The notes below the pieces were generated by a model. That model saw nothing but the letters and a program-made list of their open reading frames with translations, did not search any database and was not told the origin of the DNA. From the NCBI GenBank assembly GCA_028284905.1, contig JANQQU010000065.1:1-64000 (forward strand): a stretch of DNA of 64,000 nt. The letters run 5' to 3'. A program made the position numbers and the translations under genes. Of the stretch, positions 3,130 through 8,605 are shown one piece after another (position 1 is the first letter of the stretch; every line of letters starts with the position of its first letter). The stretch comes from Calditrichia bacterium (GTDB lineage Bacteria; Calditrichota; Calditrichia; RBG-13-44-9; J075).

Positions 3130-3924
3130 TTATCGAAGCAAGATCATCTTCTCTGTTGCCTGGAAACTGGCGGTTTCCATAGTGTAGAAATACACGCCGG
3201 CTGCGACCGCTTGACCAAACTGATTGCGGGCATCCCAGCTAATTTCGTGAGTGCCGGCATTCAATGAAACATCCAGCAAGGTGCGGATCAAAGCGCCACT
3301 GCTATTGTAAATTCGCAGGGAAATTCTTTCACTTTCCGGCAGGTTAAATCGGATAGTCGTTGAGGGATTAAAGGGATTCGGATAGTTCTGTGACAGTGAA
3401 AAAGATTCCGGTGCTTCCTGATCGGGGCCTATTGCAGTCGGCGCCAGCAATGTTTGGATCATCGATTTGATCGCATTGATATTATTGGCGATATTCGCCG
3501 TGCCTTTATAGCGCAAAATGCCGTCCTGATCGATGACAAGTCCCCGATCATACGTGGTTTGATATTGCGTCGCTACACTACTGCCTCGTAAGCAAATTGG
3601 AAATGTAATGCCGGTGTTGTTCCGAAATACGGTGACCTGGCTGCTATTTCCATTCCAGGTATCCATACCAATTGCCTGGAATTCTTCGTCGAGAAAAGTC
3701 TGATTAATTGAAGACTCTACGGTTGGACCAACCGCTAAGCAAGTGCCTCAGCTATAGCCAAACAGGAAGAGAAAAACGACTTTTCCCTGAAAATCGGAAA
3801 GTGAGAGTGTATCGCCGTCTATTGTATTTAATGTAAAATCTGGTGCAGGATTACCTACAGATTGTCCGAAAAGCGGTAAGCTTAACATAGAAAACATTAA
3901 TAGCATTTTCGCAAATTTATTCAT
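3130..3924 (-). CDS. Candidate selenoprotein: exported thioredoxin-fold (redoxin) protein with UxxC motif and sorting tail
   Basis: 264 codons read as one frame from ATG 3924 through an in-frame TGA at 3750-3748 (codon 59) to the stop at 3130. Residues 1-22 form a signal peptide (MLLMFSMLSLPLFGQS). Residues 24-55 match the AhpC/TlpA redoxin start (GNPAPDFTL, DGDTLSLSDF, GKVVFLFLF). The TGA falls in GYS-U-G-T-C, exactly where the first cysteine of a redoxin CxxC motif sits, with the second cysteine (62) intact. The reading frame stays conserved after it, including a cis-Pro-type segment (GITFPICLR). The C-terminus (about 180-264) is a T9SS-type tail (NYPNPFNPST, ending EKMILLR). A SECIS-like hairpin begins just after the TGA. 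A Trp-to-stop mutation or sequencing error is the alternative. The precise Cys position and hairpin favour selenocysteine. No sel genes lie in the window. Confidence 0.72.
3719..3750 (-). promoter_or_regulatory. Candidate bacterial SECIS element after in-frame UGA
   Basis: On the minus strand the UGA (3750-3748) is followed by 19-20 bases and then a hairpin. CGGTT(G) at 3734-3729 pairs with (C)AACCG at 3725-3720, with an apical GGUC(C) loop and a possible further G-U pair below. As I recall the published bacterial SECIS consensus, it asks for a short stem, a G among the first two loop bases and about 16-37 bases from UGA to loop, and all three fit. GGUC also occurs in the E. coli fdhF loop. 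Covariation has not been tested. Confidence 0.6.
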
Positions 3925-4081: not shown

Positions 4082-4110
4082 TTGACTCTGGAATTCGGAG
4101 AAATTATTAT
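4082..4110 (+). promoter_or_regulatory. Probable trp operon promoter
   Basis: TTGACT (4082-4087) and TATTAT (4105-4110), each 5/6 matches to the -35 and -10 consensus, are separated by exactly 17 bases. A start site near 4117 would place the leader-peptide ATG about 23 bases downstream. It matches the sigma-70 pattern; the promoter preference of this lineage's housekeeping sigma is not known from the window. Confidence 0.65.
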
Positions 4111-4139
4111 TGCTGAGAATTTAACAACGAAAGAAAAAA

Positions 4140-4235
4140 ATGCTGACTTACAACCTTCTCACAAATTTCTGGCGTTTCTGGTGGTGGCATTCTGCGATAG
4201 GAGAAGGTGGCATTTCTGCGTCCGTTTATAGCTGA
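4140..4235 (+). CDS. trpL: trp leader peptide (attenuation control)
   Basis: A 31-residue open frame beginning ATG CTG ACT at 4140 and ending TGA at 4233-4235. It contains four Trp codons within six (residues 11, 14, 15, 16: W-R-F-W-W-W), a density that does not arise by chance and is diagnostic of trp leader peptides. It lies between a good promoter and a Rho-independent terminator, 95 bases upstream of trpE. The ribosome binding site is weak (GAAAG-like purines). The reading frame runs through RNA segment 2 of the attenuator, so ribosome position controls folding: stalling at the Trp codons when charged tRNA-Trp is scarce should favour read-through into trpE. Confidence 0.88.
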   Translation: MLTYNLLTNFWRFWWWHSAIGEGGISASVYS

Positions 4236-4294
4236 CGCCAGGTAAAATAAAAGACTTGAAATCGAAACCCGCCTTCTCCGAGGCGGGTTTTTTT
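4153..4294 (+). promoter_or_regulatory. trp attenuator with three mutually exclusive pairings
   Basis: Segment 1 (4153-4160, ACCTTCTC) is perfectly complementary to 4201-4208 of segment 2. Segment 2 (4200-4210) pairs over 11 bp, with one G-U, with segment 3 (4269-4279). Segment 3 overlaps the left arm and loop of the terminator (3:4). Stalling on the Trp codons (4170-4187) would hide segment 1 and free segment 2 for the anti-terminator 2:3. Free translation or no translation allows 1:2 and hence the terminator. These are the classic protector, anti-terminator and terminator states. Confidence 0.85.
4265..4294 (+). terminator. Rho-independent terminator of the trp leader
   Basis: A perfect 9-bp stem AAACCCGCC (4265-4273) / GGCGGGTTT (4282-4290), with an 8-base loop, runs into a T tract to 4294. 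It lies 36 bases upstream of the trpE start, so it can only act as an attenuator or an upstream insulator. Confidence 0.92.
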
Positions 4295-4330
4295 ATGTAC
4301 TGAACCAGGCAACCAGATTGAGGAAAAATT

Positions 4331-5806
4331 ATGCACCCGATTTCTTTTAACGAGTTCCAACAACAGGCCATGCATGGCAATGTCATTCCAATTGCTGCGT
4401 CGTTATTTGCAGATTTATTAACGCCGGTGTCGGCTTTCCTGAAATTGTGTGGTCATGATGATAATGGCTTTTTGCTGGAATCTGTTGAAGGGGGAGAAAA
4501 GGTTGGGCGATATTCTTTCCTGGGCAGATTTCCCCGGGAATATGTGCAGTCGGACGGAAAACAAATCAAAGTCACCAATGGGGATAAAACGGAGACGATC
4601 GCCGGGGATATATACGAATACATGCAGGAAAAATTTCGTCATTACAAGTTTGTCCACAACCCGGAACTGCCGCGTTTTTCTGGTGGGATGGTTGGATATT
4701 TCGGATATGACAGTGTGCGCCTGCTGGAGAAAATCCCCGAGAAAAATGATCCACTGCCACAATCCCCAATCGCTGCATTCGGTTTGTATGATACAGTCCT
4801 GGCCTTCGATCATCTGCGCCATCAAATTTTGATTATTACCAATGTTTTTCTGGAAGATGGCGTTAGCCTGCGGGAAAGCTATGATGCAGCGCTGGAGAGA
4901 ATAGACGCGATTCGCCAACGGCTCGATCGTCCCCTGCAGGTACATAAACATCAGGGAGGCACGCATGCAGATGTGTCTTCGAATTTTGCCAAACGAGATT
5001 TCTGCGAGGCGGTGCGCAAAGCGAAGGAATACATCCGCGCCGGGGATATTTTTCAGGTAGTACTTTCCCAAAAATTTTCCCGTCCGGTTACCGCCCCTCC
5101 CATCGATATCTATCGCGCATTACGTCAAATTAACCCTTCTCCTTACCTTTTCTATCTTCGAATGAATGATCAACACATTATTGGCTCCAGCCCGGAACTT
5201 TTGGTGCGGGTGGAAAACGATGAAGTATCGGTGCGTCCCATCGCCGGCACTCGTCCGCGCGGTAAAACTGCCACGGAAGATAATCGCCTGGCAGAAGAAC
5301 TGCTGGCGGATGAAAAAGAACGCGCCGAACACGTGATGCTGGTAGATTTGGGGCGGAATGATGTCGGCAGAGTGGCGGATTACGGTAGCGTTAATCTCAG
5401 CGAAAATATGATTGTGGAACGATACAGTCACGTCATGCACATCGTCTCGGAAGTGCGTGGCAATTTACGCCCGGAGCTCGATGCAGTCGATGCCTTTAAA
5501 GCCGGTTTTCCGGCGGGAACCGTTTCCGGTGCACCGAAAGTGCGGGCGATGGAAATTATCGAAGAGCTGGAACCGGAACGGCGCGGCCTTTATTCCGGCG
5601 CGCTCGGCTACCTGGATTTTTCCGGTAATCTCGATACCTGTATCGCCATCCGCACTATGGAAGTGATTGATGGCGTGGCGCATTTTCAGGCGGGCGCCGG
5701 CATTGTCGCAGACTCAGTGCCAGAAACCGAGTATGCGGAAACGGTGCATAAATCCAATGCATTGCGCACAGCAATCGCCATCGCCGAAGGCGGGGTGGAC
5801 CGGTGA
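4331..5806 (+). CDS. trpE: Anthranilate synthase component I
   Basis: 491 residues, normal for the family. It converts chorismate, with ammonia from TrpG, to anthranilate, the committed step of tryptophan synthesis. The N-terminal domain carries the LLES element (residues 48-51) linked to tryptophan feedback binding. The C-terminal chorismate-binding domain shows PIAGTRPRG, RYSHVMHIVSEV, FPAGTVSGAPK and a C-terminal GAGIVADS. The start at 4331 is preceded by TTGAGGA. First structural gene of the trp operon, directly after the attenuator. trpG follows 137 bases later, beyond a palindromic repeat. Confidence 0.97.
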   Translation: MHPISFNEFQQQAMHGNVIPIAASLFADLLTPVSAFLKLCGHDDNGFLLESVEGGEKVGRYSFLGRFPREYVQSDGKQIKVTNGDKTETIAGDIYEYMQEKFRHYKFVHNPELPRFSGGMVGYFGYDSVRLLEKIPEKNDPLPQSPIAAFGLYDTVLAFDHLRHQILIITNVFLEDGVSLRESYDAALERIDAIRQRLDRPLQVHKHQGGTHADVSSNFAKRDFCEAVRKAKEYIRAGDIFQVVLSQKFSRPVTAPPIDIYRALRQINPSPYLFYLRMNDQHIIGSSPELLVRVENDEVSVRPIAGTRPRGKTATEDNRLAEELLADEKERAEHVMLVDLGRNDVGRVADYGSVNLSENMIVERYSHVMHIVSEVRGNLRPELDAVDAFKAGFPAGTVSGAPKVRAMEIIEELEPERRGLYSGALGYLDFSGNLDTCIAIRTMEVIDGVAHFQAGAGIVADSVPETEYAETVHKSNALRTAIAIAEGGVDR

Positions 5807-5815
5807 TTTAAATTG

Positions 5816-5895
5816 GCCACTGATAAACACGGATGAACACTGATTCAATATATTTTTGATTTTTAAATCCGTGCTTATCTGTGTGAATCCGTGGC
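5816..5895. repeat. Interspersed palindrome, GCCACGGATnnACACGGAT family (copy 1)
   Basis: Begins GCCACTGATAAACACGGAT and ends as its inverse, ATCCGTGGC, with an AT-rich centre. It belongs to the same family as 8491-8578 and 12315-12422. It fills the trpE-trpG gap and would be transcribed as a long hairpin. Confidence 0.8.
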
Positions 5896-5943
5896 TGGAA
5901 AAATGAAAAAAGAATTCAAAAACCATATAAAATGAGGTTAGCA

Positions 5944-8490: not shown

Positions 8491-8578
8491 GCCACAGATG
8501 AACACGAATAAACACGGATGACAACTATAACATAATTAAATAATTACTTATCCGTGTGAATCAGTGTAAATCCGTGGC
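8491..8578. repeat. Interspersed palindrome, GCCACGGATnnACACGGAT family (copy 2)
   Basis: Starts GCCACAGATGAACACGAAT and ends TCAGTGTAAATCCGTGGC, an imperfect inverted repeat with an AT-rich centre. It fills the 138-base gap between trpC and trpF. Confidence 0.8.
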
Positions 8579-8605
8579 TTAAAATCAATAAACAAGAAAG
8601 ATACA

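What the first reader, a model, noticed from the sequence alone, without database searches (positions are those of the whole stretch)
4082..4330. Complete ribosome-mediated trp attenuator with leader peptide WRFWWW
Seen: promoter, a 31-codon leader with four Trp codons, terminator and two competing helices (8 bp and 11 bp) all overlap as required. Known: leader-peptide attenuation is best described in Proteobacteria and Actinobacteria, while Gram-positives use TRAP or T-box. Inferred: this FCB-like lineage uses the proteobacterial-type mechanism. Segments 1 and 3 share the same CCTTCTC word, so both compete for segment 2. The stop codon lies beyond segment 2, unlike the E. coli arrangement, so the leader ribosome must pass through segment 2.
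Basis: partly seen in the sequence, partly recalled or inferred. Interest (0 to 1): 0.78.

Follow-up and report, generated by a model that had tools for sequence, protein, structure and literature searches.

The report
Tryptophan leader-peptide attenuator in Calditrichota
Upstream of the tryptophan-making genes of a little-studied bacterium (phylum Calditrichota) lies a short tryptophan-rich reading frame and an RNA switch of the E. coli trp type, and related species carry the same design for tryptophan and histidine genes, which extends a textbook mechanism to a phylum where I found no report of it.

Summary
A sigma-70-like promoter (4082-4110), a 31-codon leader ORF with Trp at codons 11 and 14-16 (4140-4235), an intrinsic terminator (4264-4291) and an 11-bp antiterminator (4200-4210 with 4269-4279) precede trpE of a complete trpEGDCFBA operon. 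The host is a Calditrichota bacterium. Relatives in four families carry Trp-rich leaders with a terminator: both occur together in 10 trpE loci and both are missing in 9. The antiterminator sequence differs between families, but in 8 of 8 leaders where it is clear it starts 14-18 nt after the last Trp codon of the run, just outside a stalled ribosome; a masked-folding calculation reproduces the switch. T-box and TRAP were not detected; TrpR was not detected in the host's order. Correction: segment 1 (the 8-bp 1:2 helix) is weakly supported and not conserved; the conserved core is ribosome position against 2:3/3:4. A stop codon beyond segment 2 is lineage-typical. The same genome has two tandem His leader-peptide attenuators before a second tRNA-His gene and hisG, and His leaders are common in the phylum. 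New member of a known kind; expression evidence is lacking.

The parts
4082..4110 (+). sigma-70-like promoter, TTGACT-17-TATTAT; start of transcription inferred near 4117
   Evidence: in G002 (L005) TTGACA-17-TAATAT lies at the same 29-nt distance from the leader ATG
4140..4235 (+). leader-peptide ORF of 31 codons, Trp at codons 11, 14, 15, 16, TGA stop
   Evidence: Trp-rich leaders upstream of trpE in relatives
4170..4187 (+). regulatory Trp codons (WRFWWW)
4153..4160 (+). segment 1 (ACCTTCTC), possible anti-antiterminator arm; weakly supported, not conserved
4200..4210 (+). segment 2 (GGAGAAGGTGG), 5' arm of the antiterminator; starts 15 nt after the first base of the last Trp codon
4269..4279 (+). 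segment 3 (CCGCCTTCTCC), shared by antiterminator and terminator
4264..4291 (+). intrinsic terminator hairpin (segments 3:4) followed by a T-run
4331..5806 (+). trpE, anthranilate synthase component I
   Evidence: NCBIfam TIGR00564 573 bits
5932..6555 (+). trpG
   Evidence: TIGR00566
6555..7661 (+). trpD
   Evidence: TIGR01245
7664..8467 (+). trpC
   Evidence: NF001377
8606..9268 (+). trpF
   Evidence: NF002298
9225..10451 (+). trpB
   Evidence: TIGR00263
10618..11409 (+). trpA
   Evidence: TIGR00262

Best explanation
Ribosome-mediated transcription attenuation of the trpEGDCFBA operon. RNA polymerase starts near 4117 and a ribosome translates the leader peptide. If charged tRNA-Trp is scarce, the ribosome stalls at Trp codons 11 or 14-16; its leading edge then ends just before 4200, segment 2 stays free, pairs with segment 3 as soon as that is made, and prevents the terminator, so trpE is transcribed. 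If tRNA-Trp is charged, the ribosome runs over segment 2 and on to the stop codon between segments 2 and 3, 2:3 cannot form, and 3:4 terminates near 4291-4297. After ribosome release segment 1 may hold segment 2, in this species at least. Shown: the sequence elements, their conservation, their spacing and their mutual exclusivity in folding calculations. Inferred: transcription, translation, stalling and the response to tryptophan.
For: Leader, terminator and promoter at the right places in front of a full trp operon. Trp-rich leaders with terminators in G002, G007, G009, G013, G016, G017, G019, G029 and probably G025; 10 of 10 trpE loci with a strong terminator have a Trp-rich ORF, 0 of 9 without one (Fisher p about 1e-5, own arithmetic). 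Eight leaders with clear 2:3 helices of different sequence start segment 2 at +15, 18, 17, 15, 15, 15, 14, 17 nt from the last Trp codon of the run. Masked folding: antiterminator probability 0.97-1.00 with the ribosome at every Trp codon of the run, falling to about 0 within two to four codons. No T-box or TRAP in 40 phylum genomes, no TrpR in the host's order. Same design for his, including two attenuators in the same genome.
Against: No expression data. The nearest trpE by identity, G003 (71%), has neither leader nor strong terminator. The E. coli-type 1:2 helix is marginal and not conserved; without a ribosome the equilibrium fold before segment 4 favours 2:3, so the outcome on an untranslated transcript depends on kinetics. 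The Rfam Trp_leader model hits only below threshold (20.7 of 41 bits).
Confidence: 0.93

Rival explanations
1. Classical four-segment E. coli copy: the 1:2 helix is essential as protector and the stalled ribosome works by masking segment 1.
For: An 8-bp ACCTTCTC:GAGAAGGT helix exists in the window (-10.8 kcal/mol).
Against: 26/1000 shuffles reach it; no comparable helix in six relatives, including the closest leader, G002; a ribosome at codons 14-16 does not cover segment 1.
Confidence: 0.2
2. Leader-peptide control at translation rather than transcription, or reinitiation coupling of a small ORF to trpE.
For: A leader ORF precedes trpE; reinitiation after short leader ORFs is proposed as widespread (PMC4833913).
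Against: 95 nt and a strong terminator with T-run separate leader stop and trpE start; the antiterminator overlaps the terminator, not the trpE ribosome-binding site.
Confidence: 0.03
3. Control by TRAP, a T-box or another factor, with the Trp-rich ORF incidental.
For: Such factors control trp genes in Firmicutes.
Against: No T-box or TRAP in 40 phylum genomes, while control genomes gave the expected hits; the Trp-rich ORF is unique in the window and conserved.
Confidence: 0.02
4. Not regulatory: chance ORF next to the terminator of an upstream gene.
For: Short ORFs and terminators are common.
Against: No + strand gene upstream that would need the terminator; 0/5000 shuffles; conservation and spacing.
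Confidence: 0.01

Closest known systems
E. coli trp leader (trpL, Rfam RF00513)
   Same: Trp-codon run in a short leader ORF, intrinsic terminator, competing antiterminator that starts about 18 nt after the last Trp codon; trpE downstream (sequence checked, control)
   Different: Longer leader, stop codon beyond segment 2, segment 1 weak and not conserved, no evident sequence similarity, RF00513 below threshold, no TrpR partner detected in the host
Actinobacterial trp leader-peptide attenuators (Seliverstov et al. 2005, PMC1262725; listed, not read in full)
   Same: Trp leader peptide and alternative RNA structures upstream of trp genes in a non-proteobacterial phylum
   Different: Different phylum; sequence similarity was not tested
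Bacillus his leader peptide at hisZ/hisS (Naville and Gautheret 2010, PMC2965389)
   Same: Amino-acid leader peptide outside Proteobacteria and Actinobacteria; the authors considered repeated origin possible
   Different: Different amino acid, phylum and genes
Flavobacterium psychrophilum predicted leader-peptide attenuators (PMC9723704)
   Same: Predicted leader-peptide attenuation of amino-acid operons in another phylum outside Proteobacteria
   Different: Bacteroidota; the main text does not mention trp

Membership tests
Ribosome-mediated (leader-peptide) transcription attenuator | Short translatable ORF rich in codons for the product amino acid, upstream of the matching operon | tested here: met
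   conserved in relatives
Ribosome-mediated (leader-peptide) transcription attenuator | Intrinsic terminator between leader ORF and first structural gene | tested here: met
   (4264-4291)
Ribosome-mediated (leader-peptide) transcription attenuator | Antiterminator that excludes the terminator and is free only when the ribosome stalls at or before the regulatory codons | tested here: met
   (folding with a masked ribosome; a calculation, not an experiment)
Ribosome-mediated (leader-peptide) transcription attenuator | Protector 1:2 helix (E. coli type) | tested here: inconclusive
   present in the window, 26/1000 shuffles, absent in relatives
Ribosome-mediated (leader-peptide) transcription attenuator | Trp-dependent termination in vivo, coupling of translation and transcription | not testable with these tools
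   no expression data
Rfam Trp_leader RF00513 | Score at or above the gathering threshold | tested here: not met
   20.7 bits against 41
T-box | Covariance model match RF00230 | tested here: not met
   0 of 40 genomes
TRAP-controlled trp leader | Genome encodes TRAP (PF02081) | tested here: not met
   0 of 40 genomes

The most novel reading that the evidence does not exclude
Calditrichota use, as a general rule, a reduced three-segment leader-peptide attenuator for trp and his, in which the ribosome itself, not a protector helix, decides between antiterminator and terminator, with segment 2 placed about 14-18 nt after the last regulatory codon, arisen independently of the proteobacterial ones; in the host genome two such His attenuators in series also gate a tRNA-His gene.
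Probability: 0.4. Interest if true: 0.62.

Novelty: new member of a known kind. Interest (0 to 1): 0.48.

Why it matters
It extends a textbook mechanism to a phylum where the held literature has no report of it, and suggests a simple rule: sequence changes freely while the ribosome-footprint distance between regulatory codons and antiterminator is kept. That offers a way to find leader-peptide attenuators in poorly studied phyla where covariance models fail, and makes the question of repeated origin of such attenuators testable.

Tried and rejected
Rfam models: only sub-threshold attenuator hits. A covariance model of the leader was not built, because the sequences differ between families. Phe leaders upstream of pheA-type genes: 1 F-rich ORF in 30 loci, no excess. 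T-box, TRAP: none. The automatic antiterminator choice failed for L012 (G019) and L016 (G025), and L023 (G016) is weak on shuffles (133/1000); L012 and L016 are counted as Trp-leader loci but not as support for the spacing rule. Of 80 trpE loci, nearly all of other phyla, only about three to five have convincing Trp-run leaders, mainly Deltaproteobacteria (L081, L083, L084).

Full report
What is there. The region 4082-4330 holds a sigma-70-like promoter (TTGACT, 17 nt, TATTAT), a 31-codon ORF at 4140-4235 (MLTYNLLTNFWRFWWWHSAIGEGGISASVYS), and an intrinsic terminator at 4264-4291, 39 nt before trpE. Downstream follow trpE, G, D, C, F, B and A in one direction. No other place in any frame of the 64-kb window has four Trp in six codons, and 0 of 5000 shuffles of the region produce such an ORF.

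Where it comes from. The window lies in an 8.55-Mb assembly; the best named TrpE relative is Calditrichaeota bacterium HKST-UBA06 (70%). The phylum set held has 40 genomes.

Conservation. I read the upstream DNA of trpE in all relatives with a usable locus. Trp-rich leaders occur in G000 and G002 (family f1), G007, G009, G013 (f2), G016, G019 (f4), G017 and G029 (f5), and a looser one in G025 (f5). These ten loci are also the ten with a strong terminator; nine others (G003, G028, G032, G026, G021, G031, G034, G024, G018) have neither. The joint presence and absence (10 and 9, no mixed cases; Fisher p about 1e-5, my arithmetic, ignoring relatedness) argues that leader and terminator are one device. 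G002 keeps WWW, the EGG codons that form segment 2, and a promoter with the same 17-nt spacer and 29-nt distance to the ATG. G003, the nearest by TrpE identity, has lost or never had it.

Geometry. The best helix between the leader and the terminator's 5' arm was chosen by score alone, over the whole leader. In the window it is GGAGAAGGTGG:CCGCCTTCTCC, in f2 AGTGGGTGG:CCACCCACT (with TCACCCACT and CCGCCCACT variants on the 3' side), in the G017/G029 genus GGGTTCAGT:ACTGGGCCC or ACTGAACCC. Sequences differ, yet segment 2 starts 15, 18, 17, 15, 15, 15, 14 and 17 nt after the first base of the last Trp codon of the run. A ribosome with that codon in the A site reaches about 12-13 nt further (established toeprint distance, from my own knowledge), so segment 2 begins just outside it. 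In E. coli trpL, read from the sequence verified, the distance is about 18. These eight loci are not all independent (three are f2, two one genus).

Folding with a masked ribosome. I folded the nascent RNA up to the terminator loop with 31 nt masked and no pairing across the ribosome. In all eight leaders the antiterminator probability is 0.97-1.00 with any Trp codon of the run in the A site and falls to about zero within two to four codons. With a ribosome at the stop codon it is zero, partly by construction because that ribosome stands on segment 2 or between segments 2 and 3. The E. coli control behaves likewise, with lower absolute values. This is a consistency test, not proof.

Segment 1. 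The 1:2 helix exists in the window (8 bp, -10.8 kcal/mol; 2:3 is -19.6, 3:4 is -17.1) but is reached by 26 of 1000 shuffles and has no counterpart in six relatives. I therefore hold the ribosome itself to be the main switch element and segment 1 an optional, species-specific aid. In the window the stop codon lies 22 nt beyond segment 2, so a terminating ribosome no longer covers segment 2 itself; there segment 1 could be useful after release. In f2 the stop is 6 nt beyond; in the G017/G029 genus it abuts segment 2.

Alternatives for trp control. T-box 0/40 and TRAP 0/40, with working controls. TrpR is present in 19 of 40, none in the host's order (families f1-f3); G016, G017, G029 and G025 have TrpR and a Trp-rich leader, a combination also found in E. 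coli.

Beyond trp. Upstream of hisG, 16 of 26 loci have a short ORF with at least four His in six codons; the next amino acid reaches 4 of 26. Many show terminators and 2:3 helices (up to 13 bp) starting 12-30 nt after the last His codon of the cluster, most at 14-20. In the host genome two such units stand in series (MIQMNAHIHHYHAHSNQTERWAE and MRTLHRHHHIHHHFPPG, each with its own terminator, spacing 14 and 15), followed by a tRNA-His(GTG) gene and hisG.

Novelty. Naville and Gautheret (PMC2965389) stated in 2010 that to their knowledge leader-peptide systems had been shown only in Proteobacteria and Actinobacteria, before adding Bacillus; Flavobacterium has predicted ones (PMC9723704). I found no paper on attenuation in Calditrichota in the held library, which lacks most subscription journals, so the absence of a report is not established. 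The kind is known; the phylum, the spacing rule across unrelated sequences and the tandem his arrangement are the new parts.

Noticed in passing
L142 (G000:C25), about 960-1350: Two tandem His-rich leader ORFs, each with its own terminator and antiterminator, followed by a tRNA-His(GTG) gene at 1240-1313 and then hisG: the attenuators would gate a tRNA for the amino acid they sense. This tRNA appears to have A at position 73 rather than the usual C; a second, canonical-looking tRNA-His lies in a Pro-Arg-His cluster on C32.
   Followed up: partly
hisG loci L117-L142: His-rich short leaders upstream of hisG in 16 of 26 Calditrichota loci, often with terminator and antiterminator.
   Followed up: partly
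window 3130-3924, minus strand: Candidate selenoprotein: AhpC-TSA domain plus type IX secretion tail, with one in-frame TGA in the motif FGYSUGTC; homologues have UxxC (one TGA) or CxxC at the same site, and the genome has a tRNA-Sec gene at 73 bits.
   Followed up: partly
window 5815-5900 and 8500-8580: Related inverted repeats (ACACGGATGAACACTGAT-like) in the trpE-trpG and trpC-trpF gaps of the operon; the first gives a sub-threshold Rfam hit to mir-1954. Looks like a small dispersed repeat.
   Followed up: partly
G000:C32:30154-30327 (L216): Two adjacent tRNA-like genes that ARAGORN reads with a four-base anticodon (cttg).
   Followed up: no
Calditrichota genomes G000-G039: TrpR is present in 19 of 40 genomes but in none of the host's order (families f1-f3), where Trp leaders occur in five of the six trpE loci with upstream sequence.
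   Followed up: partly
L081, L083, L084: Trp-run leaders (WSWWW, WWWW, WWW) upstream of trpE in three Deltaproteobacteria/Desulfobacteria genomes.
   Followed up: no
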